This document shows, one piece after another, positions 18,625 to 30,246 of a DNA stretch of 64,000 bases; position 1 is the stretch's first letter, and every line of letters begins with the position of its first letter. The translations under genes were made by a program, and so were the position numbers. The stretch comes from a virus. The stretch is taken from IMG/VR virus record IMGVR_UViG_3300009171_000001, positions 1 to 64,000 of that record; one strand, given 5' to 3'. The notes under the pieces are model-generated. The model was given only the letters and a program-made list of their open reading frames with translations, had not been told where the DNA came from and did no database searches.

Positions 18625-20025
18625 TCATTTCTCATTATCACCTTTGTCCTCATCTTCATCCTCATCCTCATCCAATAAATCACCTTGATATTGGGTTCGT
18701 TCCCCCTCAATCATATTCACCTCAGCCTCAGACATCCGGTGAATAGAGGTTAAATAGGAGCGTGGGGGGAGTAAAGCATCTACTCCACCAGCCACATATT
18801 TAGCAAACGCATCAGTCTTTTTCATTGCTATGTCCGCCACATCCATTTCAGTAGGCGATTCCAAATCTGGCCATTTCACCTTATATTCGGTGGGTTTGGG
18901 CAAACAACCCAAAGCAATCAACCTATCAAAAAATGGACGTATTACCAAAGGTGTCAAGTAACTTTCACGACGCCTGGAAATACGGCTGTTATGTACCTTT
19001 TTATCCTGCACCCCCGCCAACTTCCCCTCCTCTGTCCCCATAAATATCCGGTACGGTATTCCCAAAGCCATTGCTATCAACCGCACATGCCACTCCAAAT
19101 GTCCTGATGGGTTGACCGCCTGTGGCTGTAAAGATTTAGCCGATACCCCAGTCAACATCAACCATCGTTGCAAACCCTGCCCCCATAAAAATAATTGGTC
19201 CTTCATACTTTCCTCATCTATTGTAGCCCCCGCCTTTTCCGCCTCTGGGGTCAATTCAAAGGAGTAACCTGGAAAACCACCTTTCCAAAACATTTCACCA
19301 CTACCGCCACTGATTTTCTTAACATCCAATAAATTATTATATACAGGTTTCATCCTGGGTACACCTAACACATCACTGACGGTACGATTATCTACAAGAT
19401 GAATGATGCGGGACCAATGCACTATTTTTTGTTCCGTAGTATTTGTCCCTTCAAACTTGATTTCATATCGGGTTGGAAAACCATAACGTGGATTAGTGGC
19501 AGTGGTTTCACTTTCTTTTATAGTCACCACAGATTGGTCGAATGTTTGTAAAAACAACAACTCCCTTTTTGTATCACCCTTCCCCCCATTAGCCTCAACC
19601 TCCATAACAGGTTCACTCAAGGGTTTGCCATCATTCAAACCCAACAGTATTACCCCAAATTGACCTATACCACTCAACACATCGGCACGGCTGAGATAAT
19701 ACCAGATGGGTAATCGTTTGAATAAAGCATTCACAGCTTTCTCAAATTCCGTCTCCTCTTTATCTTCAATTTCATAAATTTCCGGCAACAACTTCCAACA
19801 TTCCTCCGGCCACACCTCCACCACCCGTTTGGCTAATCCATGTCTATCAAAAAAGCCCTTGTAATCCTCAATTGTCAAATCTGTAGGATATTGACATTCA
19901 GTATCTATATTTCTGGCTGGACTGAGCAAACGCTGTAAAAGCTCCCGCCTCAATGTAACCGCCTCATTCCTAAATACTTGCTGTAATTGTTCATTTGATG
20001 TAACTGGTTTTTGTTCTTCTGCCAT
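18625..20025 (-). CDS. Portal protein (DUF1073-like)
   Basis: The 466-residue protein shows the DUF1073 portal plan: YKGFFDRHGLAKRVVEVWPEECW near residue 55, a SRADVLSGIGQFGVILLGLNDG segment near 110, HWSRIIHLVDNRT near 215, and an LEWHVRLIAMALGIPYRIFMGTEEGKLAG segment near 320. The last 15 residues are nearly all Asp/Glu. It forms the dodecameric channel through which DNA is packaged. Position between large terminase and head morphogenesis genes fits. Complete, with an ATG at 20025 and a ribosome binding site AAAGG. Confidence 0.85.
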   Translation of the reverse strand: MAEEQKPVTSNEQLQQVFRNEAVTLRRELLQRLLSPARNIDTECQYPTDLTIEDYKGFFDRHGLAKRVVEVWPEECWKLLPEIYEIEDKEETEFEKAVNALFKRLPIWYYLSRADVLSGIGQFGVILLGLNDGKPLSEPVMEVEANGGKGDTKRELLFLQTFDQSVVTIKESETTATNPRYGFPTRYEIKFEGTNTTEQKIVHWSRIIHLVDNRTVSDVLGVPRMKPVYNNLLDVKKISGGSGEMFWKGGFPGYSFELTPEAEKAGATIDEESMKDQLFLWGQGLQRWLMLTGVSAKSLQPQAVNPSGHLEWHVRLIAMALGIPYRIFMGTEEGKLAGVQDKKVHNSRISRRRESYLTPLVIRPFFDRLIALGCLPKPTEYKVKWPDLESPTEMDVADIAMKKTDAFAKYVAGGVDALLPPRSYLTSIHRMSEAEVNMIEGERTQYQGDLLDEDEDEDEDKGDNEK

Positions 20026-20036
20026 AATTTAACCTT

Positions 20037-21545
20037 TCAAGAGTACTTTTTGCTTGTCAATCCGTGAAAAATCCCTTTTGATGTCTGCCATCCACCACCA
20101 GCCCTTACAACTGGTTTGCTCAAAAAATTAAAAGCACCACTACTGGCATCTACTTGATCTTTATACTTGCTACGTGGAAAATGCCTCAATTCATCCAGAT
20201 ATTCTTTATTCCATCCCCCTGGCACCATATAAACATTTCCAATGTTGACTTGGGATGCATATGGTTCAGCCCTCATTTCTTTATTACCAGAGGATTGACC
20301 CACTTTATCTACACTTACAGAATACCCAGCCAGATTACGCACAGTCCATACCGCACTATCTTTCCCACCACTCCCAGGCTCTTGCTCCACCCTTATCCTC
20401 ACATCCTTCCCATCCAATTCAGCCACATCCCTAATCTTTCTCTCCCTCTCATCCACCCCCCACTGTCCTTTCACCACATTCAACACCCAATACCTCCCCT
20501 CTTTATCCTTCCCCATCTCCACCCCCGCCGTCCTGGCCCCACCATCTTTAGTACCCGCCTTATCCCAATAACGTAATCTCGTCACCCATTGTATTTTATC
20601 CGGTATTTCAGACAGGACAATCATATTTGTCTTGAACATCATACCACCTTCAGGTATAGGTTTTTGTAATACCTGGCCGGCATAACCATATTCACCCAAC
20701 TGTCTCCACAAATCCTCCAAATACCCCCTGGGCATCTTAACAGGGTCAAGTAATCCATCTTTGTAATATTTTTTCAATTCAGGTGGTTTTACATCATCTG
20801 TTATTTCACCAGGCAAACATATATGTTGGATATCATCCCCACCCATATCCAACAAAGTTTGTGTAGGGTCATCCTGATGCAACCGCTGCATAATGAGGAT
20901 GATAGGGGCAATACGTTTGTAAGTAGCCACCTTTCGTGTAGGCAACGTCCTGGTCATCCATCGGTTCACCGTTTTCAAATCAGCTTCAGATGCACTGCGT
21001 TCAGGGTCAATAGGGTCATCCACAAGCAAAAAATGCCCGTGCATGCCTTGAACCTGCCCCCCCACACCCACCGTGTACCGGCTGCCACCCAATGTATTTT
21101 TGAAATAGCTTTTGACATGCTGATCCTGCCTCAACACAATTTCAGGGTAACAAGCCCTATATTTCTCACTCCATATCAAATCCCTACTTTTCAAAGCCAA
21201 ATCCAACCCTACACTGTCAGTATAACTGGCGGTAATAAATTGTGCACTGGGCATCCGTGTCCACACCCACGCCGGATACATAATACTACAGATGGTACTT
21301 TTAGTTGTGCCAGGGGGGATATTCACTACAATATCACCTTTTTTGGGCAACCTGTTAAAAACCCGCTCAGCAGCAGTTTGTAATACCCCACACAGATATG
21401 ATATATGCCAGTTGTCAATAAATGGCTCACACAGAAAACTTTCAAAGAATTCCACCACAAACCGATAAAAACTACTCCGGCATATACTACCCACCACAGT
21501 GGCTTCATCCAATTCTAATTCATCCAATACACTCATGTCTATCAT
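20037..21545 (-). CDS. terL: Terminase large subunit
   Basis: The 502-residue ATPase-nuclease drives DNA packaging. Walker A is NIPPGTTKST near residue 89, Walker B is GHFLLVDDPIDPE near 172, and a coupling motif follows (IILIMQRLHQDDPT). The nuclease domain starts near residue 315 with LRYWDKAGTKDGGARTAGVEM, giving the first conserved Asp, and continues through VRIRVEQEPGSGGKDS. An internal ATG at 21536 (MSVLDELELD) may be the true start, because nothing like a ribosome binding site was resolved before 21545. Confidence 0.9.
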   Translation of the reverse strand: MIDMSVLDELELDEATVVGSICRSSFYRFVVEFFESFLCEPFIDNWHISYLCGVLQTAAERVFNRLPKKGDIVVNIPPGTTKSTICSIMYPAWVWTRMPSAQFITASYTDSVGLDLALKSRDLIWSEKYRACYPEIVLRQDQHVKSYFKNTLGGSRYTVGVGGQVQGMHGHFLLVDDPIDPERSASEADLKTVNRWMTRTLPTRKVATYKRIAPIILIMQRLHQDDPTQTLLDMGGDDIQHICLPGEITDDVKPPELKKYYKDGLLDPVKMPRGYLEDLWRQLGEYGYAGQVLQKPIPEGGMMFKTNMIVLSEIPDKIQWVTRLRYWDKAGTKDGGARTAGVEMGKDKEGRYWVLNVVKGQWGVDERERKIRDVAELDGKDVRIRVEQEPGSGGKDSAVWTVRNLAGYSVSVDKVGQSSGNKEMRAEPYASQVNIGNVYMVPGGWNKEYLDELRHFPRSKYKDQVDASSGAFNFLSKPVVRAGGGWQTSKGIFHGLTSKKYS

Positions 21546-22140
21546 ATGACAAATCCCAAAAATTTATACGGGATAAAAAATACACCCGATAGAAAATATA
21601 ATAACGGGGTGGGGTAAGCTAAGCTACTGGAAAATATAGGGGATAATAAATGAACGATATATAGTCTATAAAGTAAATCCCAAAAATTGGATGAATATGA
21701 AAAACCCACCCCGATGAATAATAAATAGGGGGTATAGGGGGATAATATCTGGTTGAAGGGGAGTATCAGGAATATCAAGAATAGTACGATATATAGTCTA
21801 TAAAGTAAATCCCAAAAATTTGGTAATAACCGTGGGATGGCCATTACCCCCCCTTTTACCCCCTCCCCCCCTCTATAGCGGGGTCGTCTAAAAATAAATA
21901 TATACTTTATATCCATAATACATCCTATATATACTATCTATACATCTATACTATATATCCTATAATAGTATATACTTTATATCCTGAATATACTTTGTAT
22001 ATACTATATATCTATACTATACTTATATCCTATTCTGGTATATACTATCTATACTTTTCTTATCCATAATACATCCTATATATACTATATATCTATACTA
22101 TACTTATATCCTATTTTGGTATATACTATATATCCTATTT
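21546..22140. repeat. AT-rich direct-repeat region between terminase genes
   Basis: Two direct-repeat families are visible. A 36-bp unit beginning CGATATATAGTCTATAAAG occurs at about 21656 and 21789, with a partial third copy (AAATCCCAAAAATTT) at 21550. A second family occurs at about 21911-22130: blocks starting ATCCATAATACATCCTATAT (21911, 22062) and ATATCTATACTATACTTATA (about 22008 and 22087). A 124-codon minus frame crosses the first family but is made of the repeats and is not accepted as a gene. Place beside the terminase genes suggests a packaging site or replication origin; this is inference. Confidence 0.5.
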
Positions 22141-22926
22141 CTATTCATTACCTGCACCCCCCTCATTATCTATTTTATCGGGTAATAGGGCCACGGGATT
22201 AGGGGATGGTATATTATCTATAACCGTACTATCGATGGCCCGCCGTCTAATAGTTTCTAATATCTTCTCGCGTACATCCATCGGTAACTCGTCTATAACT
22301 ATCCTTCCTTTTATAGTAGTATTTTTATCTATCTCTATTTTCTCCCCGTACCCTCTATCCTTACACTTTGTTTTTAGCCCGTATAGAATCGCCGTTGTAT
22401 CCATCGCTTTTACTAATTTATAAAATTGACTCTCTATAAAATCCTTCTTTATATCCTCTATTTCTTTTACTAACTTACCGAAATCGCCATCGTTATTTAA
22501 CCACTGGTAATACAACCCTCTACTTATCCCGACTTTCCGGCAAGCCTTCGCTATAGAGAAATTATTAGATATTAGGGCGTAGATAAAAAGATATTGATTA
22601 GCTGCTTTCCCCTTATTAGCCAAAAGGCTTTCTATTTTCCCCGTATCCGTCCCCTCTTTATCATACTGATTTATCTTTTCCCAAACGGATTTTAGGTTAT
22701 CGGGTAGCCGATTATAAACATAGTCTTTTATGCTTAGGTTGTTATTAGTTTTTTTCCGTATAGACTTAGCTGTCTTTATAGCCATTCTAATCTTTTTATA
22801 CTTTTTTCTCCATGTTATCAAGGTTGGCTTAGTCACGCCTATAGTTTTGGCTACGGTATTTAAGGTGGCACCATCCTTCACCAAATCGTATATCGTAAAA
22901 ACTAAACTATCGTTCCATTTTGTCAT
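22141..22926 (-). CDS. terS: Terminase small subunit-like protein
   Basis: The 261-residue protein has an N-terminal helix-turn-helix (TLNTVAKTIGVTKPTLITWRK, about residues 20-40) and a second one in the middle (NFSIAKACRKVGISRGLYYQWL, about 122-143), followed by a helical region and AILYGLKTKCKDRGYGEK, a common small-terminase motif. It would bind the packaging site and feed DNA to the large subunit. It is the first gene of the minus block. Its codon choice (many ATA and CGx codons in an AT-rich gene) differs somewhat from the structural genes downstream. Confidence 0.7.
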   Translation of the reverse strand: MTKWNDSLVFTIYDLVKDGATLNTVAKTIGVTKPTLITWRKKYKKIRMAIKTAKSIRKKTNNNLSIKDYVYNRLPDNLKSVWEKINQYDKEGTDTGKIESLLANKGKAANQYLFIYALISNNFSIAKACRKVGISRGLYYQWLNNDGDFGKLVKEIEDIKKDFIESQFYKLVKAMDTTAILYGLKTKCKDRGYGEKIEIDKNTTIKGRIVIDELPMDVREKILETIRRRAIDSTVIDNIPSPNPVALLPDKIDNEGGAGNE

Positions 22927-23219
22927 ATATCTAATTATATCCTATATATCCTATATATTTATACCCTGATTAGGGATTTTTAGAATATACCGTTGAAACC
23001 TGAAAAAGTCAATAGGCAGGTATAGATTTATAGACGGAAAAAAGTAAAATTTCTTAAGATTTTTTGGCCTTAAAATCTTGGTTTTTAGCGTAAAAACGGG
23101 GTTTTCCAAGATTTTTTCGATATACCCTAAAATTTTCTAAAGATTTCTCTCGCCTTAGCCGATAACGTATAGTATAGTATATATAGTATAGGCTATAAAG
23201 TATAGCCTAAGCATATTTG
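22927..23219. promoter_or_regulatory. Divergent intergenic region, AT-rich with hairpins
   Basis: The minus and plus gene blocks diverge here, so early and packaging promoters should lie inside. I see a hairpin AAGATTTT/AAAATCTT (about 23056-23080) followed by a T-run on the plus strand, resembling a terminator, and a perfect 8-bp hairpin TAGGCTAT/ATAGCCTA at about 23189-23209. Tandem TATAGTATA-like runs stand at 23168-23190. No reading frame is convincing and no promoter can be fixed with confidence. Confidence 0.4.
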
Positions 23220-23535
23220 ACAAGTTTATATCGGAGGCCGGGAAGGGCGGATTTTACTACGGGGTAAGATTACGCGGTCGGCCTAAAATACCGGAAGGAA
23301 TCTAAGTCGATACGCTACGGCTTACCTGGAAGTCCCGCTCCCGAAGAGGGCAGGCGGGTATCTAAGGAAACTACGGGTGGACGGCTTCCAGCTCTATTTC
23401 AACCACGCTTCGGCCTCAGGCCCGATAGGGGTTAAAATAGTATCAAGGCTGGCGGCGGGGCAGGGCGATATATCGTAAGGATTTACGGGCAAGCGGGCGA
23501 TACCAAGCAGATTTATCTGCCGGCAAAAGTCCACA
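23220..23535 (+). ncRNA. Candidate structured non-coding RNA (about 315 nt)
   Basis: This stretch is GC-rich inside very AT-rich flanks, has no open frame and folds by eye into many local helices: AGGCCG/CGGCCT (23236/23279), CTGGAAG/CTTCCAG enclosing CCCGC/GCGGG (about 23326-23391), CTATTTCAACC/GGTTAAAATAG (about 23394-23440, one mismatch), CGTAA/TTACG (about 23473-23487) and GCAGA/TCTGC (about 23507-23520). A GCCGG/CCGGC pair could close the whole. The plus strand is chosen because a tRNA-like element and plus genes follow. It is not RNase P RNA, tmRNA or SRP RNA as far as I can see; phage RNAs such as GOLLD or ROOL are possible comparators. Confidence 0.45.
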
Positions 23536-23609
23536 ATATAATATAAGATATATATACTTTATATATATACTTATATTACCAATTCTCCCTTAGAAAGAAA
23601 ATTAGATTA

Positions 23610-23672
23610 GGGCCTAATCGGATTACCCGACAAAATATATCGGGTATAGCGGTTCAACTCCGCTATAGGCTC
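23610..23672 (+). ncRNA. tRNA-like element 1 (no D arm)
   Basis: GGGCCTA at 23610-23616 pairs with TAGGCTC at 23666-23672 as a 7-bp acceptor-like helix. A T arm with AGCGG, loop TTCAACT and CCGCT lies at 23648-23664, and a central stem ACCCGA/TCGGGT at 23625-23645. There is no D arm and only 63 nt, so it is not a usual tRNA. The central stem resembles the hairpin of the pseudoknot elements nearby. It ends about 50 nt before the first early gene. Confidence 0.6.
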
Positions 23673-23725
23673 TTGTGTTTGTAAGTAAAATATCTAATAA
23701 TTATCTTATTTAAGGAGAACAAAAA

Positions 23726-23992
23726 ATGAAAACCGAAACGAAAACCGAAACGAAAATTACGAACGCCGAAAAAAGGGTAATCTTATCCGCTATTCGGGAA
23801 AAGATAAAAATCGCCTCCGATATTCTTTCCGTCGCCACCGTCGAGGAAAATTACGAGGATGAGGTAGTTATCGATGCGATAACGGACGCGGCGTTAATCA
23901 TCGAAATCGCGTATCTTAATTCGCTCGATGACGGCGGAGCGAGGATTCTTTACCCGCCGAAAGACGGGGAGGCCTACCGGAACGGGGAATAA
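23726..23992 (+). CDS. Early hypothetical protein, 88 residues
   Basis: The start has an AAGGAGAACAAAAA leader shared with six other genes nearby. The product is acidic and helical (EKRVILSAIREKIKIASDIL, EENYEDEVVIDAITDAALII) with a KTETKTETK start. It is not recognised. It is the first gene of the plus block, behind tRNA-like element 1, and is followed by pseudoknot element 1. First position and small size suggest an early host-takeover protein, which is inference. Confidence 0.6.
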   Translation: MKTETKTETKITNAEKRVILSAIREKIKIASDILSVATVEENYEDEVVIDAITDAALIIEIAYLNSLDDGGARILYPPKDGEAYRNGE

Positions 23993-24000
23993 AAGTTGAA

Positions 24001-24069
24001 ATACCCGATAATCTATATCGGGTATATATAGGTGAAAAGCGATAACCTATACTGATGAGACTAATCGCT
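24001..24069 (+). ncRNA. Hairpin plus H-type pseudoknot, copy 1
   Basis: Hairpin ATACCCGATA/TATCGGGTAT (24001-24025, 5-nt loop) is followed by stem 1 TATAGGT (24027-24033)/ACCTATA (24045-24051) and stem 2 AGCGAT (24038-24043)/ATCGCT (24064-24069). The stems interleave with loops of 4, 1 and 12 nt, ideal for an H-type pseudoknot. It lies just after the 23726 gene and about 37 nt before the next start codon. Confidence 0.65.
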
Positions 24070-24106
24070 AAAATATCTATTTAATATCTATTTAAGGAGA
24101 ACAAAA

Positions 24107-24382
24107 ATGAGAACGTCGAGAAAAGCTCCGATTATTCAAGTCCGAACTTTGGCCGAAAGGATAATCGAAATTAGCGAAAATCCACTAAGTGAAGCAGATT
24201 TTGAAGGGAAGACGGGACGCTCTCGGAGCGAGGTATTACTATTTTTAGCGAAGACTATCCTAATGGAATTAGAATCCACCGCTAAGTCTCGCCTCTTATA
24301 TATACCCGCTAAGTCAAGCATTGCCGCTAAGTCAAGCATTGCCGCTAAGTCAAGCATTGCCGCTAAGTCAAGCATCCGCTAA
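24107..24382 (+). CDS. Early hypothetical protein with repeat-made C-terminus
   Basis: The 91-residue product has a helical body (TLAERIIEISENPLSEADF, RSEVLLFLAKTILMELEST) and a tail of AAKSSI units encoded by a direct DNA repeat. The tail length therefore depends on repeat number and is likely unimportant for the fold. It begins after the shared leader and its stop overlaps the first bases of tRNA-like element 2. No family is recognised. Confidence 0.5.
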   Translation: MRTSRKAPIIQVRTLAERIIEISENPLSEADFEGKTGRSRSEVLLFLAKTILMELESTAKSRLLYIPAKSSIAAKSSIAAKSSIAAKSSIR

Positions 24383-24384
24383 GT
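24307..24384 (+). repeat. Tandem 18-bp repeat GCTAAGTCAAGCATTGCC
   Basis: Four near-perfect tandem units, the last shortened to GCTAAGTCAAGCATCC, run up to the stop codon of the host gene; each starts with GCTAAGT, a word that is unusually frequent on this strand. The number is expected to vary between relatives through slippage. Confidence 0.85.
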
Positions 24385-24434
24385 CTCCATCTGAAATAGA
24401 GGTCAGATTTATAGGTTCGACTCCTATGGAGACT
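24382..24434 (+). ncRNA. tRNA-like element 2 (no D arm)
   Basis: AGTCTCC at 24382-24388 pairs with GGAGACT at 24428-24434 (extendable to 8 bp), the T arm is ATAGG-TTCGACT-CCTAT, and the central stem is ATCTGA/TCAGAT (24389-24394/24403-24408). Only 53 nt separate the acceptor ends. The 3' flank TTTTGTAAGTAAAATATC is nearly that of element 1. Confidence 0.65.
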
Positions 24435-24481
24435 TTTGTAAGTAAAATATCTAATAATTATCTTATTTAAGGAGAACAAAA

Positions 24482-24817
24482 ATGAAGACCAAAATAAAAG
24501 ACACATTAAGACCATTCACTAAACAGGATGATCGCGTTTTTTGCAGCACTAAAAAACCTTCGGATGGCTCAACACCACTTATCGGCAGGGTCAAGATAAC
24601 AAATTGGCCTGATTCCGATAAAACTGATGGGTGGGATGACTTTGTGACTGTAATAGTGGATGGCCTCGGAGTATGTTTGTGTGGGACAGATGGTGTATTA
24701 ACAAGAGCCATCCCAGATTTTGAAGATGCTAAGGCCATTGCATATTACATTCTCTCCACTCCCACAGATTACATCCAACTGGTAAATAGCGGCAAGTGGG
24801 AATCCATCAATCTGTAG
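24482..24817 (+). CDS. Early hypothetical protein, 111 residues
   Basis: It follows tRNA-like element 2 and the shared leader. The chain begins MKTKIKDTLRPFTKQDDRVF and has a beta-rich middle (DDFVTVIVDGLGVCLCGTDG) and a helical DFEDAKAIAYYILS segment near the end. No family is recognised. Pseudoknot element 2 follows its stop codon by about 24 nt. Confidence 0.6.
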   Translation: MKTKIKDTLRPFTKQDDRVFCSTKKPSDGSTPLIGRVKITNWPDSDKTDGWDDFVTVIVDGLGVCLCGTDGVLTRAIPDFEDAKAIAYYILSTPTDYIQLVNSGKWESINL

Positions 24818-24840
24818 TAAAAACCGCCCGCTAAGTCGAA

Positions 24841-24909
24841 ATACCCGATATAGATTATCGGGTATATATAGGTCAAAGCGATGAACCTATACTGATGAGA
24901 CTAATCGCT
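24841..24909 (+). ncRNA. Hairpin plus H-type pseudoknot, copy 2
   Basis: Hairpin 24841-24865; stem 1 TATAGGT (24867-24873)/ACCTATA (24885-24891); stem 2 AGCGAT (24877-24882)/ATCGCT (24904-24909). Loop 3 is again 12 nt (CTGATGAGACTA). The hairpin loop differs from copy 1 (TAGAT in place of ATCTA) while the stem is kept. Confidence 0.65.
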
Positions 24910-24946
24910 AAAATATCTAATAATTATCTTATTAAGGAGAACAAAA

Positions 24947-25807
24947 ATGAAGACAGTAAAAACAAACCGATTAAGTGAACGTGCTATGCTGGTACACCTG
25001 CGCATTTTGAGATATGCCGGTCATACCAAAGACAATGAAGTAGTTTTGGACGTTTGTTCGCAAAAACAAGCCACTCAGGACAGCGGTGGATGGTACACCT
25101 ATTTGATTCCAAAAAAGGAATTGAGTGGTGTTAATCACGCTGCTTCCCGATGTCGCGAAATCCACAATCACTATACTTTTCCATGGCTGGATGGTGGGAT
25201 GCGGATATTACCATCTTTGTATTTCTTCAAATACCGCGAAGCCATCGCTACGGCCATCGCTGAGTATGATGAGGCAGTTGAGATATTTCTAACCAGATAC
25301 CCAGACATTGTAACTAAGTCCAAGGAACGTCTGGGTCAACTGAACAGAATAATGCCATCGGTGAAGGAGATTCAAAGCAAGTTTGCAGTTTCACACAGCA
25401 TATTTCCACTGCCTGAGACGGAGGACTTCCGTGTCAAATTGGCGGATGAGGAAAAGGAGTCTGTGAAAGCAACAATCACAGACAGTCTCAATGCCACAAT
25501 GACGGCTGCGGTCAGTGCCGTTTGGGGCAAATTAGCCAAGTCTGTGGAAAAGATTGCTGCAGCCACAAAGGACAAAGACAAACAATTTCGCAATGTCCTT
25601 TTCACAAACTTGGTTCAACTGTGTGAGGATTTGCCTCAACTGAATTTTACTAATGACGTCAAATTAGAAGAGGTGAGACAGCACATCTTAACTACGCTGG
25701 CTAAATTCAATCCAGATGATGTTCGTGAAGACAGTCAAAAACGCAAGGCAGCTGCCAAAGCAGCCAAAGACGTTTTGAACAAGATGAAAGATTATGCAAC
25801 TACATAG
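24947..25807 (+). CDS. DUF3150-like protein
   Basis: The 286-residue protein has a GGWYTYLIPKKELSGVNHAASRCREIHNHYTFPWLDGGMRILP region (residues about 45-90) and a long helical C-terminal half (about 160-286, with EEKESVKATITDSLNATM and a final KAAAKAAKDVLNKM). This plan, and the MoxR ATPase plus VWA genes following, match DUF3150 proteins that accompany MoxR-VWA pairs in phages. It may be the substrate or partner of that pair. The family call is by recalled pattern and neighbourhood. Confidence 0.55.
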   Translation: MKTVKTNRLSERAMLVHLRILRYAGHTKDNEVVLDVCSQKQATQDSGGWYTYLIPKKELSGVNHAASRCREIHNHYTFPWLDGGMRILPSLYFFKYREAIATAIAEYDEAVEIFLTRYPDIVTKSKERLGQLNRIMPSVKEIQSKFAVSHSIFPLPETEDFRVKLADEEKESVKATITDSLNATMTAAVSAVWGKLAKSVEKIAAATKDKDKQFRNVLFTNLVQLCEDLPQLNFTNDVKLEEVRQHILTTLAKFNPDDVREDSQKRKAAAKAAKDVLNKMKDYATT

Positions 25808-25817
25808 CGTGTTCTCC

Positions 25818-25867
25818 GACCACCGCAGGTTTCAGGCCGTTAATGGGTTCAAACCCCATCGGTGGTC
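25818..25867 (+). ncRNA. tRNA-like element 3 (no D arm)
   Basis: GACCACC at 25818-25824 pairs with GGTGGTC at 25861-25867 (8 bp counting G25825-C25860). The T arm is ATGGG-TTCAAAC-CCCAT at 25843-25859, with a textbook T loop. The central part (25826-25842) does not form as clear a stem as in elements 1 and 2. The 3' flank TTGTGTTTGTA is shared with element 1. Confidence 0.6.
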
Positions 25868-25919
25868 TTGTGTTTGTATGTAAAATATCTAATAATTATC
25901 TTATTTAAGGAGAACAAAA

Positions 25920-26159
25920 ATGAACCTGCAAGAAATTAAAAGCCGAGTTGAGGCACTAAAAGCCTCTCTGAAAATTGATGCTGTCGATGCCATTTATGAA
26001 GACAGCTTTGCGCTCGGCTATTTTGGCAATCAAATCCAGCATGAAATTGCCGGCCACGAAGGTTGCTTTGCCTATGCTCGTACATCGAGCAAAGCTCGCA
26101 TCGAGGCGATTGTAAACATGCTTGTGAATGAAGGAGAATGTTTGGCCAAAAAAGACTAA
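25920..26159 (+). CDS. Early hypothetical protein, 79 residues
   Basis: Begins MNLQEIKSRVEALKASLKID after the shared leader; the middle has YFGNQIQHEIAGHEGCFAYAR and the end is helical (SKARIEAIVNMLVNEGE). The H-E-x-x-G-H like segment is not a good zinc site. It lies between tRNA-like element 3 and pseudoknot copy 3, in front of the MoxR gene. No family is recognised. Confidence 0.55.
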   Translation: MNLQEIKSRVEALKASLKIDAVDAIYEDSFALGYFGNQIQHEIAGHEGCFAYARTSSKARIEAIVNMLVNEGECLAKKD

Positions 26160-26165
26160 GTCGAA

Positions 26166-26233
26166 ATACCCGATATAGAATATCGGGTATCTACGGATAA
26201 AAGCGATAATCCGTATCGAAAAGACTAATCGCT
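26166..26233 (+). ncRNA. Hairpin plus H-type pseudoknot, copy 3 (covarying stem)
   Basis: Hairpin 26166-26190 is unchanged in stem, but stem 1 is TACGGAT (26192-26198)/ATCCGTA (26209-26215): three base pairs differ from copy 1 and all three are compensated. Stem 2 AGCGAT/ATCGCT (26202-26207/26228-26233) is kept. Loop 3 is 12 nt with a different sequence (TCGAAAAGACTA). This copy is the best evidence that the pseudoknot is real. Confidence 0.7.
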
Positions 26234-26270
26234 AAAATATCTAATAAATATCTTAAAAAGGAGAACAAAA

Positions 26271-27257
26271 ATGAATGCTAAACAAATGAAAGTTGTACTG
26301 ACTAAGTGCATCAAAAACGGTTTGCCCGTGCTTATCAAAGGAGCGCCAGGTGTTGGCAAGTCTGATGTCGTGACGCAAGTAGCTGCTGAATTGAAGATGG
26401 ATTTAATCATCAGCCATCCAGTGGTAAGTGACCCGACAGACTTCAAAGGTCTGCCAGGGATTGTGGATGGCAAAGCTGAATTTTTGCCGTTTGGTGATTT
26501 GCGCTCGCTAATTCAAGCCAAAAAGCCAACAATTGCTTTCTTGGATGATTTGGGCCAAGCACCAGCCGCAGTACAAGCTGCAGCAATGCAACTAATCCTT
26601 GCTCGCCGAGTGAATGGACATAAAGTGAGTGACAAGGTGGTATTTATTGCCGCCACTAATCGACGGCAAGACAGGGCTGGTGTAACAGGCATCCTTGAAC
26701 CTGTTAAGTCCAGATTTGCCACCATCATTGAGTTGACACCAGATTTAGACAGCTGGTCTGAGTGGGCGTTGGCTAATGATGTTCCACCGCAGATTTTGGG
26801 CTTTTTGAATTTTCGCCCAAATTTGCTTTGCACCAATGAAGCAACAGCCGATATTGTGAACCATCCGTGCCCACGTACTTGGGCTTTTGCAAGCAAATTA
26901 ATCCAAATTGATTTGACGGATATACAAAGTCTGGCTGGAGCTTTGGGCGAAGGTTGTGCGGTTGAGTTTGTGGGATTTATGCGAGTGTTCGACAGTTTGC
27001 CGAACATTCAAACAATCCTATTAGACCCAGAAAATACCACCATCCCAAATGAACCTGCCGCTATGTATGCTGTGGTGTCCGCCTTGGTTAATCGAGTGTC
27101 CGACAAGACATTCAAAGCCATAGTTACATATGCTGACCGTTTGCCAGCTGATTTTGGCACGCTGCTAATCCGTGATTGTGTTAAGTCCAATCCAAACATT
27201 CAAAACACTGCTGCTTTTGGTCAATGGGCCATCAAGCACGCTAATTTGCTAATATGA
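26271..27257 (+). CDS. MoxR-type AAA+ ATPase
   Basis: The 328-residue ATPase shows Walker A GAPGVGKSD near residue 24, Walker B TIAFLDDLGQAP near 85, sensor 1 VFIAATNRRQDRAGV near 125 and an arginine-bearing EPVKSRFATIIEL segment near 145. MoxR ATPases work as chaperones with VWA-domain partners, and such a partner is encoded next. The stop overlaps or abuts the next gene start. Function in the phage is unknown; remodelling of a host or phage complex with the VWA protein is inferred. Preceded by pseudoknot copy 3 and the shared leader. Confidence 0.85.
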   Translation: MNAKQMKVVLTKCIKNGLPVLIKGAPGVGKSDVVTQVAAELKMDLIISHPVVSDPTDFKGLPGIVDGKAEFLPFGDLRSLIQAKKPTIAFLDDLGQAPAAVQAAAMQLILARRVNGHKVSDKVVFIAATNRRQDRAGVTGILEPVKSRFATIIELTPDLDSWSEWALANDVPPQILGFLNFRPNLLCTNEATADIVNHPCPRTWAFASKLIQIDLTDIQSLAGALGEGCAVEFVGFMRVFDSLPNIQTILLDPENTTIPNEPAAMYAVVSALVNRVSDKTFKAIVTYADRLPADFGTLLIRDCVKSNPNIQNTAAFGQWAIKHANLLI

Positions 27258-27265
27258 GGTGTACA

Positions 27266-28372
27266 ATGAATGCTATGGAAATTATGACTAAGGCCAGAAC
27301 TCACTTGTTGCTTGACCATCCATTTTTTGGATGCTTGGCCATGCGATTAAGTCTGGTTGAGGACAATCAGTTTGAAACAGCGGGGACAGATGGCAAGGAA
27401 TTGAGATTCAATTCACAATTCATTCAATCATTACGATTGAATCAAGTGGTTGGATTGTTTGCTCACGAGGTTATGCACTTGGCTTTGGGGCACAACTGGC
27501 GGCAAGGCACACGTGAACATGAACGGTGGAACAACGCTGGCGATTACGCCATCAATTCCAATCTTGTCCGCACTGGGATTCACCTGCCGGATGGTGCTTT
27601 GATTGCTTATCAGTTTGACAAAATGAGTGCAGAAGAAATTTACACTTATCTTCCGTCCAATCCAAACCAAAATCAAAGCTCCGGCTCAAGCCAAACGTCT
27701 GATCCAGGTGGTTGCGGGGCAGTATTACCCACACCCAATGATTCTCAACTGGATGAGACTAAGGCAGAGTGGAAGACAGCAGTGGCTCAAGCCATACAAT
27801 TTGCTGGCATCGGTAATTTGCCTGCGGATTTGGCTCGCCAATTACAATCGGTGATTGACCCATCGTTGCCATGGTATGTATTGCTGCGTGATTTTGTAGA
27901 ACGCTCAGCGCGCAACGATTTCACTTGGCAAAGGCCAAATGCTCGCTACATCAATCAAGGCATTGTTCTGCCAGGATTGATTAGTGAAGAGTTGCCTGAA
28001 GTGATTGTGGCTGTTGATACCAGTGGCTCAATTAGTCAAGCCCAATTGGATTCTTTTGCGGCTGAGGCCAGTGCGGTGCTTAGTGCTTACAAAACAACAA
28101 TCCGTGTGATATATTGCGACAACGAAGTACAAGGCGAGCAAATCTATCAAACAGATGATTTGCCCATCCACTTATCACCGAAAGGTGGTGGCGGGACAAA
28201 GTTTGACCCTGTGTTCCGCTATGTAAACGAGAATGGATATACACCATCCTGCGTGATATATCTGACGGATTTGTTGGGGCCCACACCCCAATGTGAGCCA
28301 GAATGCCCTGTACTTTGGGTAAGTACAAAGCCAGGCAAAATGCCCTTTGGTACAGTGATTCAACTGAATTGA
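27266..28372 (+). CDS. VWA-like metallopeptidase-domain protein (DUF2201-like)
   Basis: The chosen ATG at 27266 has GAGGT 6 nt upstream; an ATG at 27254 overlapping the previous stop is possible. Residues about 40-85 hold a zincin-like motif HEVMHLALGH followed by HERWNNAGDYAIN, as in DUF2201 N-terminal domains. Residues about 240-365 form a VWA-like domain with a metal-ion site (VAVDTSGSIS) and YLTDLLG. A linker rich in S, Q and P separates them. It should pair with the upstream MoxR ATPase. The joint role in infection is not known. Confidence 0.8.
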   Translation: MNAMEIMTKARTHLLLDHPFFGCLAMRLSLVEDNQFETAGTDGKELRFNSQFIQSLRLNQVVGLFAHEVMHLALGHNWRQGTREHERWNNAGDYAINSNLVRTGIHLPDGALIAYQFDKMSAEEIYTYLPSNPNQNQSSGSSQTSDPGGCGAVLPTPNDSQLDETKAEWKTAVAQAIQFAGIGNLPADLARQLQSVIDPSLPWYVLLRDFVERSARNDFTWQRPNARYINQGIVLPGLISEELPEVIVAVDTSGSISQAQLDSFAAEASAVLSAYKTTIRVIYCDNEVQGEQIYQTDDLPIHLSPKGGGGTKFDPVFRYVNENGYTPSCVIYLTDLLGPTPQCEPECPVLWVSTKPGKMPFGTVIQLN

Positions 28373-28380
28373 ATGTCGAA

Positions 28381-28447
28381 ATACCCGATAATCTATATCG
28401 GGTATATATAGGCTAAGGCGATAACCTATACTGATGAGACAATCGCT
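28381..28447 (+). ncRNA. Hairpin plus H-type pseudoknot, copy 4
   Basis: Hairpin 28381-28405; stem 1 TATAGG (28407-28412)/CCTATA (28425-28430); stem 2 GGCGAT (28417-28422)/ATCGCT (28442-28447), where the A-U pair of other copies is a G-U. Loop 3 is 11 nt. It precedes the 28484 gene and follows directly on the VWA gene. Confidence 0.65.
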
Positions 28448-28483
28448 AAAATATCTAATAAATATCTTAAAAGGAGAACAAAA

Positions 28484-28690
28484 ATGGAACTATGGACTAA
28501 AACACGATGGACTCGCTTGCGAAAGAAATCGAAAATAATTCAAACGGGTGGGATTGAAGGTTCACAAATTTACAATCTCATAATCGAAACACCCGAAGGC
28601 AAACACCTGGCTGGAGACTTGATATGGGATGGGTGGGCAGAGCTTGTGCAAGTCTGGACGCCAACACCACAAGAATACAAGCAAACGTAA
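28484..28690 (+). CDS. Small hypothetical protein, 68 residues
   Basis: Starts MELWTKTRWTRLRKKSKIIQ behind pseudoknot copy 4 and the shared leader; a basic N-terminus is followed by a beta-rich segment (IYNLIIETPEGKHLAGDLIW) and a tryptophan-rich end. The segment resembles small phage proteins that bind nucleic acid, but no family is recognised. Confidence 0.55.
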   Translation: MELWTKTRWTRLRKKSKIIQTGGIEGSQIYNLIIETPEGKHLAGDLIWDGWAELVQVWTPTPQEYKQT

Positions 28691-28708
28691 GGAGAACCAA
28701 AATACATC

Positions 28709-28738
28709 CGCTAAGGCTCGCTAAGGCTCGCTAAGGCT
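28709..28738 (+). repeat. Tandem 10-bp repeat CGCTAAGGCT (three copies)
   Basis: Three exact tandem units lie between the 28484 gene and the ribosome binding site of the sigma-like gene. Each contains GCTAAG, the same word that heads the 18-bp repeat at 24307 and is over-represented on this strand. Confidence 0.85.
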
Positions 28739-28761
28739 AACATTTTTTAAGGAGAACAAAA

Positions 28762-29268
28762 ATGAACAACAATAATATAGAAATGACGTATTGTGATTGT
28801 GTTGATTTGATACGCAAAACAGTTTGGGATTTCATCGCTAAGTACAACAAACATCCCGATGAGTTTGATGAACTGATGAGTCAGGCTAATGAATACTTTA
28901 TGACCGCATACAACACGCATGATAAAACGCGAAGCTCATTTACCACGTGGTTGAGGGTAAGGGTATGGTACGGATTAGTGATGGCTAATGGCAAAGAAAT
29001 GAAACACACTCGCAATCAATCCCGTCCACCACGCCCAACAAATCATCAAGACAACATAGGATTATTGGATTTGATAGACAGTTTGAATGAGGATGCCAAA
29101 AATCTAATCTTGCTGGTACGAAGTGTGCCAGCAGATTTGGACCAGCTGTTTCATCGTGCACACCGCAAACCCGCACGCAAGTATGTCTTTCAATACTTGA
29201 AAGATTGTGGATGGACGCGGAGTGAGATATTGAATGCTTTTTCAAGTTTGAAATGCCTATTACAATAA
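28762..29268 (+). CDS. Sigma-factor-like protein, early region (tentative)
   Basis: In this 168-residue protein residues about 32-75 (DEFDELMSQANEYFMTAY, then FTTWLRVRVWYGLV) read like sigma region 2, with the typical F-x-T-W-L helix. The C-terminal 60 residues (LLDLIDSLNEDAKNLILLVR and KDCGWTRSEILNAFSSLK) could be a diverged region 4 helix-turn-helix. The link is a basic, proline-rich segment. It follows an AAGGAGAACAAAAATG start. If active, it could act at middle or late promoters. Identification is by pattern only. Confidence 0.5.
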   Translation: MNNNNIEMTYCDCVDLIRKTVWDFIAKYNKHPDEFDELMSQANEYFMTAYNTHDKTRSSFTTWLRVRVWYGLVMANGKEMKHTRNQSRPPRPTNHQDNIGLLDLIDSLNEDAKNLILLVRSVPADLDQLFHRAHRKPARKYVFQYLKDCGWTRSEILNAFSSLKCLLQ

Positions 29269-29282
29269 AAAAGGGGGACAAA

Positions 29283-29453
29283 ATGGAAACCGACAAGAAG
29301 GAACAAATTGTTTATCTACATATTTGCTTTTTTTGTAACAAACGCTGGTGGACACCTAACAAAGTTGCTAATTGTCCCAAATGTTCCCATCAGCATATTT
29401 GGTTCAGGGGGACAAGTAAAATAGTTGATGTAAAAATGGAGGTACAAAAATGA
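29283..29453 (+). CDS. Small zinc-ribbon protein
   Basis: Start ATG 29283 is chosen for AAGGGGG 6 nt upstream. The 56-residue product carries two Cys pairs (HICFFCNKRW and ANCPKCSHQH), spaced as in a zinc ribbon, and is otherwise basic. It is likely a small nucleic-acid or protein-binding factor. Its stop overlaps the next start by 4 nt. Confidence 0.6.
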   Translation: METDKKEQIVYLHICFFCNKRWWTPNKVANCPKCSHQHIWFRGTSKIVDVKMEVQK

Positions 29454-29692
29454 CTTCATTAAACCGACCAGTTAAGCGTACAAACGCTGGGATGGTGCGT
29501 GAAGGCGGTAAGATGAGGGCCATTATCATTACCATCCGGCCACCTAATATTATTGGATTCAGGGCAAAGGGATGTCACAAGGAGTATCAACTGACTACAG
29601 AGGCTTGTTACATTATGGCTGTACGAGCCCAGGTATTGGATTTACAAAAACAAAAGAAACTCAAAAGAAGACACAAAGGAGAACAAAAATGA
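29450..29692 (+). CDS. Small basic hypothetical protein, 80 residues
   Basis: Begins MTSLNRPVKRTNAGMVREGG, has a beta-rich MRAIIITIRPPNIIGFRAKG segment and a basic C-terminal helix (LQKQKKLKRRHKGEQK). The ribosome binding site for the next gene (AAAGGAG) lies inside its last codons. Members of this kind are common in phage early regions; no function is recognised. Confidence 0.55.
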   Translation: MTSLNRPVKRTNAGMVREGGKMRAIIITIRPPNIIGFRAKGCHKEYQLTTEACYIMAVRAQVLDLQKQKKLKRRHKGEQK

Positions 29693-30246
29693 AAAACATA
29701 TCAAAAAATTGTAAACAGGAGGGGACAATAATCTCCAAAGCACTCGAACCTTTGGCAGTAGAAGCAAGGAAATATAAGACAGTAGAGGAATTTGAGGAAA
29801 AATTATGGGAGATAAAACAATGGGGCGAACAAAGACATAGAACGTCCGGTTTTCCTCAATTAAGCGCAATGCCTGGAGAAGAGGAACGATACAATAAGTG
29901 GTATGAAAATTTATCACCAGAAAAGAAGGCATTAGAAGATTTATACGTTTCTTATAGAAACGTTCCCAATAGGGGAATTACCATATCAGATTTTTACAAG
30001 CAAGCCAAGCAAGCCCCTGCGCCAGAGGGGATAATTAAAGTAGGTGATACAATCACAAATGGAATGGTACGTGGCAAGGTTATTGGTGAAGGCTCTATCA
30101 AATTTGGCAAAAGTCCATTGCCTGCCTACAAAGTCAAAATCCTCACCGGCCATGAAAAAGGTACAATTTCATTGATGATTAAAACCGACTCAAAGTTAGT
30201 ATCAAATGATGCCTTTGTACAGCAGTACGGCAGAAAGAAGAAATGA
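29689..30246 (+). CDS. Hypothetical protein, 185 residues
   Basis: Start ATG 29689 follows AAAGGAGAACAAAA. The N-terminal 120 residues are helical and charged (KYKTVEEFEEKLWEIKQWGE, RYNKWYENLSPEKKALEDLY) and the C-terminal 60 form a beta-rich module (IIKVGDTITNGMVRGKVIGE, YKVKILTGHEKGTISLMIK) reminiscent of small SH3-like barrels. It overlaps the truncated helicase fragment by 4 nt. Not recognised. Confidence 0.55.
   Translation: MKNISKNCKQEGTIISKALEPLAVEARKYKTVEEFEEKLWEIKQWGEQRHRTSGFPQLSAMPGEEERYNKWYENLSPEKKALEDLYVSYRNVPNRGITISDFYKQAKQAPAPEGIIKVGDTITNGMVRGKVIGEGSIKFGKSPLPAYKVKILTGHEKGTISLMIKTDSKLVSNDAFVQQYGRKKK

What the first reader, a model, noticed from the sequence alone, without database searches (positions are those of the whole stretch)
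23220..23535. Unassigned GC-rich structured RNA candidate
A 315-nt GC-rich island in a very AT-rich divergent region has no reading frame and at least five strong helices, one an 11-bp stem with one mismatch. It directly precedes tRNA-like element 1. Large ornate phage RNAs (GOLLD, ROOL) are known near tRNA genes, so a related or new class is possible.
Basis: partly seen in the sequence, partly recalled or inferred. Interest (0 to 1): 0.7.

Follow-up and report, generated by a model that had tools for sequence, protein, structure and literature searches.

The report
Phage early-operon leader RNA with boxA
The GC-rich island is most likely the untranslated start of the phage's early transcript: it opens with a copy of the boxA signal that bacteria use to keep RNA polymerase running through ribosomal RNA genes, and related phages carry different structured RNAs behind the same signal at the same place.

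Summary
The island is real: 23,231-23,535 is 55% GC against a window mean of 40%, with no coding signal and no Rfam match. Its helices are not stronger than chance for that composition (whole-island fold z -1.2). The new evidence comes from context. The island is the untranslated leader of the early operon. Its 5' edge carries TTTGACAAGTTTATA (23,216-23,230), the same 15-mer found at boxA about 200 nt upstream of 16S rRNA in Azospirillum. At least nine related phage contigs have a boxA-like block at the head of the early region, followed by 200-860 nt of mostly non-coding sequence. Five relatives share a structured RNA domain with strong covariation (11 of 19 pairs compensated, 0/500 shuffles). 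The window's RNA is not detectably a member of that family. Best explanation: an rRNA-type boxA antitermination leader with a lineage-specific structured RNA, perhaps released by processing at the downstream tRNA-like element. Location and boxA similarity are shown; antitermination and RNA function are inferred.

The parts
23166..23173 (+). CGTATAGT, putative -10 region of the early promoter
   Evidence: Resembles CGTATTAT at the same place in L020 and L021. Not found by the sigma-70 scan at its threshold. Weak.
23189..23209 (+). Perfect 9-bp hairpin TAGGCTATA-AAG-TATAGCCTA just upstream of boxA (boxB-like position)
   Evidence: Sequence; 23180-23299 folds with z -3.7. L024 and L072 also have a strong hairpin directly upstream of their boxA.
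23210..23230 (+). boxA-like element AGCATATTTGACAAGTTTATA
   Evidence: Top-scoring place of 127,972 in the window with a 15-nt matrix from six relatives' leaders; rank 1, 2-3 or 5 with a five-member family matrix of 15, 13 or 19 nt. TTTGACAAGTTTATA is exact in 16S rRNA leaders of Azospirillum.
23231..23535 (+). GC-rich non-coding leader RNA (the reported island)
   Evidence: GC outlier, no coding signal, no Rfam or nucleotide relative.
23235..23284 (+). 5' hairpin domain of the island: AGGCCGG/CGGCCT stem with an inner hairpin
   Evidence: Minimum-energy and centroid fold; local z -3.7 for 23180-23299, which also includes the upstream hairpin.
23394..23440 (+). 11-bp stem with one C-A mismatch (CTATTTCAACC/GGTTAAAATAG)
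   Evidence: Present, but found in 15 of 200 shuffles.
23610..23672 (+). tRNA-like element 1: 7-bp acceptor-like stem GGGCCTA/TAGGCTC, T-arm AGCGG-TTCAACT-CCGCT, no D-arm; possible processing site ending the leader RNA
   Evidence: Sequence. Similar elements at 24382-24434 and 25819-25866. Processing is inferred.
23726..23992 (+). First early gene (88 aa, unknown), preceded by AAGGAG
   Evidence: ORF list; no Pfam or PHROGs match.

Best explanation
The island is the untranslated leader of the phage's early (rightward) operon. Transcription starts just upstream (about 23180, inferred), passes a small hairpin and then a boxA element like the one in ribosomal RNA leaders. By analogy with rRNA operons, the host NusB/NusE (and NusA/NusG/SuhB where present) would bind boxA in the nascent RNA and make RNA polymerase resistant to Rho, so that a long untranslated GC-rich RNA and the string of small early genes behind it are transcribed. 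The GC-rich part is a lineage-specific structured RNA that rides behind boxA; it either tunes the antitermination complex or is a separate RNA, possibly released by cleavage at tRNA-like element 1. Shown: position, non-coding nature, boxA-like sequence, the same layout in related phages, and covariation in five of the relatives. Inferred: antitermination, processing, and any separate function of the RNA.
For: A 15-nt matrix from six relatives' leaders puts 23215 first of 127,972 positions in the window. The window's TTTGACAAGTTTATA is identical to the sequence at boxA about 200 nt upstream of 16S rRNA in Azospirillum; a Nomurabacteria contig has TTTGACAAGTTAATA 174 nt upstream of 16S. Relatives found through the early ATPase or a shared RNA pattern have boxA-like blocks followed by 200-860 nt of mostly non-coding sequence: L020, L021, L023, L024, L025, L029, L053, L070, L072. 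With a general boxA consensus not fitted to these leaders (YGCTCTTTRAYA, at most 1 mismatch) 7 of 126 non-coding gaps match on the coding strand against 1.2 (sd 1.1) in shuffles and 1 on the other strand. L020, L021, L023, L029 and L230 share a boxA-linked RNA domain with 11 of 19 pairs compensated, 0 of 500 shuffles. boxA in non-rRNA transcripts is known to act through Nus factors (PMC5725501).
Against: The window's boxA has two differences from CTCTTTGACAA, and at that looseness boxA-like words are common in the window (32 found, 24 expected). The rank of the site depends on matrix length. Relatives' sites were partly picked by eye. L022, a close relative, has no long leader RNA: its first early gene follows the promoter directly. 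The promoter is not a good sigma-70 match. The window's own RNA has no homologue, so its fold is unsupported by covariation. The host is unknown.
Confidence: 0.5

Rival explanations
1. The RNA itself acts on RNA polymerase, like HK022 put RNA: the folded leader binds the polymerase and suppresses pausing and termination, with boxA as a secondary feature or a chance match.
For: Same position as putL, right behind an early promoter (PMC9378689). Leaders in relatives are structured and, in five phages, covary including a pseudoknot-like helix.
Against: put RNAs are about 70 nt with two stem-loops; these leaders are 200-860 nt. The part best conserved across very different relatives is the boxA block, not a fold.
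Confidence: 0.15
2. The island is an independent regulatory or structural non-coding RNA made during infection; boxA only protects its untranslated transcript from Rho, as for rRNA. Cleavage at the tRNA-like element frees it.
For: GC-rich non-coding island in an AT-rich genome, T-arm/acceptor element directly behind it, covarying RNA family at the same place in relatives.
Against: No conserved sequence or fold between the window's RNA and those of relatives; none in L022.
Confidence: 0.2
3. It is a decayed or frameshifted protein gene with higher GC than its surroundings.
For: Three overlapping open stretches read like protein by eye.
Against: Codon usage of the best frame is far from this phage's genes; open length is below chance. 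No tblastn, Pfam, PHROGs or viral-contig relative of the pieces searched.
Confidence: 0.05
4. A replication origin or packaging site: a non-coding DNA element at the divergent early/late junction, not an RNA.
For: Lies between divergently transcribed early and late (terminase) genes; AT-rich repeats and inverted repeats on both sides.
Against: Relatives conserve an RNA-type signal in one orientation and covarying pairs.
Confidence: 0.1

Closest known systems
rRNA operon leader (boxB-boxA-boxC antitermination)
   Same: Promoter, small hairpin, boxA, then a long untranslated structured RNA; the 15-mer TTTGACAAGTTTATA is identical in Azospirillum 16S leaders.
   Different: The RNA behind boxA is not rRNA (no Rfam match), and phage genes follow.
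Lambda nut site (boxA + boxB + N protein)
   Same: boxA at the start of an early phage transcript.
   Different: No N-like protein recognised among the first early genes; the hairpin, where present, lies upstream of boxA as in rRNA, not downstream as in nut (established knowledge).
HK022 put RNA
   Same: Structured RNA at the start of a phage early transcript.
   Different: put is about 70 nt with two stem-loops (PMC9378689); here 300 nt with a boxA in front.
GOLLD and ROOL RNAs
   Same: Phage-encoded, near tRNA-like sequences.
   Different: No Rfam match; much shorter; no tRNA genes.
Rfam freshwater-2 (RF02980)
   Same: Weak match (25.2 bits, E 0.17) over the tRNA-like element and ribosome-binding site just downstream, 23626-23728.
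   Different: Below the gathering score of 49.9, and it does not touch the island.

Membership tests
boxA antitermination leader | boxA sequence near the 5' end of an untranslated leader | tested here: met
   23216-23230; first of 127,972 positions with the six-relative matrix; exact 15-mer in 16S leaders. Two differences from CTCTTTGACAA.
boxA antitermination leader | Conserved in relatives at the same place | tested here: met
   absent in L022.
boxA antitermination leader | NusB/NusE binding and Rho resistance | not testable with these tools
   Needs an experiment.
GOLLD / ROOL | Match to the family covariance model | tested here: not met
   No match at gathering score over the window, none to these families at E up to 10 in 22900-23800.
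GOLLD / ROOL | Length well above 300 nt and tRNA genes nearby | tested here: not met
   About 305 nt; ARAGORN finds no tRNA; GOLLD size and tRNA islands from PMC12286853.
boxA-linked RNA domain of L020/L021/L023/L029/L230 | Match to model R1 | tested here: not met
   No credible hit on the island with filters off; all scores in 20000-30000 are chance-level, 9.6 bits or less.
HK022 put RNA | About 70 nt with two stem-loops | tested here: not met
   Size and layout differ (PMC9378689).
HK022 put RNA | Direct binding to RNA polymerase | not testable with these tools
   Needs an experiment.
Protein-coding gene | Open frame with this phage's codon usage or a protein relative | tested here: not met

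The most novel reading that the evidence does not exclude
A group of phages has turned the ribosomal RNA antitermination signal into the head of its early operon and attached to it a fast-evolving class of structured RNAs, made like rRNA behind boxA and cut free at tRNA-like elements, which do something of their own during infection. The window's island would be one such RNA, and the L020/L021/L023/L029/L230 family another.
Probability: 0.2. Interest if true: 0.75.

Novelty: new variant of a known kind. Interest (0 to 1): 0.48.

Why it matters
Phage antitermination is known mostly from lambda-like phages of enteric bacteria. An rRNA-type boxA leader in uncultivated phages known only from metagenomes, with no recognised N-like protein and a long structured RNA behind it, would widen that picture and give a direct reporter test. 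The relatives' RNA family has covariation support and matches no Rfam 15 family at gathering score (which covered L020, L021 and L023).

Tried and rejected
Frameshifted gene: looked protein-like by eye, but codon score, open length and searches gave no support. ROOL, GOLLD and other Rfam families: no match. Nucleotide relatives of the island in phages, plasmids, 110 related loci and by a 19-nt pattern in viral contigs: none. Terminase-side relatives: the closest contigs (L002, L003) end before the island. TerS query found no relative. Folding energy as proof of structure: rejected, z only -1.2. Model R1 did not find the window's RNA.

Full report
What is there. The window is bases 1-64000 of a 73,759-base virus record. 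To the left of the island, late genes run leftward: terminase small subunit-like 22141-22926, terminase large subunit 20037-21545, portal 18625-20025. To the right, a string of small early genes runs rightward to an ATPase (26271-27257) and a DUF2201/VWA protein (27254-28372). The island 23231-23535 lies in the divergent gap. It is a clear GC outlier: 55% over 300 nt against 40% (sd 4.4) for the window.

Coding test. No frame of the island looks coding. The longest open stretch is 63 codons, shorter than the mean of 75 in shuffles of the same letters, and its codon score is -0.45 bits per codon against +0.19 (sd 0.13) for this phage's own genes. The protein pieces have no relative in phages, Pfam or PHROGs, and the longest piece has none in viral contigs.

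Structure test. The energy fold has many helices, but 14 of 100 shuffles fold as well (z -1.16), and the reverse strand has nearly the same z. The 11-bp stem with one mismatch exists; 15 of 200 shuffles have one too. Only the 5' edge (23180-23299, z -3.7) and the stretch past the 3' edge are unusually stable. No Rfam family matches.

The lead. Relatives were fetched through the early ATPase. Several have a long non-coding stretch at the head of the same operon. Aligned at their 5' ends they share a block: window TTTGACAAGTTTATA, L023 TTTGATAAGTTAATA, L029 TTTAACAAGTTAATA, L021 ATTGACAATTGAATA, L025 TTTGACAACCTGATG, L024 TTTAATACGCGAATA, L020 AGTTACAAGTTAATA. A 15-nt matrix made from the six relatives without the window puts the window's site first of 127,972 positions. 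With the five mutually homologous leaders only, it is first at 15 nt, second to third at 13 nt and fifth at 19 nt; by the ORF list the higher-scoring competitors lie within open reading frames. Leave-one-out ranks in the relatives' own loci were 1 (L021, L023, L029), 2 (L025), 5 (L024) and 6 (L020).

What the block is. It reads like boxA, the site in nascent rRNA that NusB/NusE bind (PMC5725501). The window's 15-mer is exact there. This does not name the host; it shows that the sequence is a natural rRNA-leader boxA. Most of the 80 hits are not near rRNA, as expected for a 17-nt word.

Enrichment. Apart from the matrix, the consensus YGCTCTTTRAYA with at most one mismatch occurs in 7 of 126 non-coding gaps upstream of the ATPase on the coding strand; shuffles give 1.2 (sd 1.1, maximum 3 in 30 runs) and the other strand 1. 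Five of the seven are candidate leaders (L021, L024, L053, L070, L072); L046 and L109 were not examined further. At two mismatches 27 gaps match against 14.1 (sd 3.4); at three there is no excess.

RNA behind boxA. L020, L021 and L029 share about 130 nt. A covariance model from these three finds L023 at E 2.7e-5 and L230 at 133 bits, neither used to build it; L230 had been fetched by a pattern for the boxA block. On the five-sequence alignment 98.9% of cells pair, 11 of 19 pairs have a change on both sides, none of 500 shuffles reaches either value, and sliding the partners destroys both. One helix (GGCT/AGCC) crosses another, so the domain is probably a pseudoknot; that helix has only one compensated pair, from L023, where the alignment is least certain. 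The alignment is fitted to three of the four helices, which favours them. The model does not find the window's island, and no nucleotide similarity links them. The relation is therefore one of position and boxA, not of shown descent of the folded part. L022, a 63% ATPase relative, has no such RNA: its first early gene follows directly, so the RNA is not needed by every member.

Downstream elements. Directly behind the island, 23610-23672 can form a 7-bp acceptor-like stem and a T-arm with a canonical TTCAACT loop but no D-arm. Two more lie at 24382-24434 and 25819-25866; the scan finds none in ten shuffles of the window. L034 and L035 have similar elements between the 286-aa gene and the ATPase. 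They alternate with three copies of a pseudoknot-like leader. RNase P or RNase Z could cut at such elements and free the leader RNA; this is inference.

How it most likely works. Shown: a non-coding leader, boxA-like sequence at its 5' edge, and the same layout in relatives. Inferred by analogy with rRNA leaders: host Nus factors load at boxA and protect the untranslated GC-rich RNA and the early operon from Rho. Not known: what the GC-rich part does. I put 0.5 on the boxA-leader explanation as a whole.

Novelty. A search of open papers for boxA with phage, early operon and non-coding RNA found rRNA, lambda-type and LoaP work but, by titles and abstracts, nothing like this layout; the library lacks most subscription journals, so this is weak evidence of novelty. 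I file it as a new variant of a known kind.

Noticed in passing
window 23610-23672, 24382-24434, 25819-25866: tRNA-like elements with acceptor-like stem and canonical T-arm but no D-arm, between early genes; the strict scan finds the last two and none in ten shuffled windows. Similar ones in L034 (about 2315-2405) and L035 (about 65-170), between the 286-aa gene and the ATPase. Possible processing signals in a polycistronic mRNA.
   Followed up: partly
window 24004-24072, 24838-24911, 26163-26235: Three copies of a leader with an invariant ATACCCGATA/TATCGGGTAT hairpin and a pseudoknot-like part; TATAGGT/ACCTATA in two copies is replaced by TACGGAT/ATCCGTA in the third, and loop GCGAT can pair with ATCGC downstream.
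   Followed up: partly
window 21900-22140: Very AT-rich tract (about 20% GC) of repeat-like TATACTATATATC sequence between the terminase-region genes.
   Followed up: no
window 24300-24380: Direct repeat GCTAAGTCAAGCATTGCC in the 3' part of a small early gene, just upstream of tRNA-like element 2.
   Followed up: no
L024 4640-4900 and 5540-5720: Arrays of short direct repeats (ACTCTATACGCTTTTCGAGTA and GACGAATCGATTAAA) between early genes of a related phage.
   Followed up: no
L072 7700-7760: rRNA-like order in a distant relative: GGTTACTTCGGTAACC hairpin followed by TGATCTTTGACAATTGCATAAG.
   Followed up: partly
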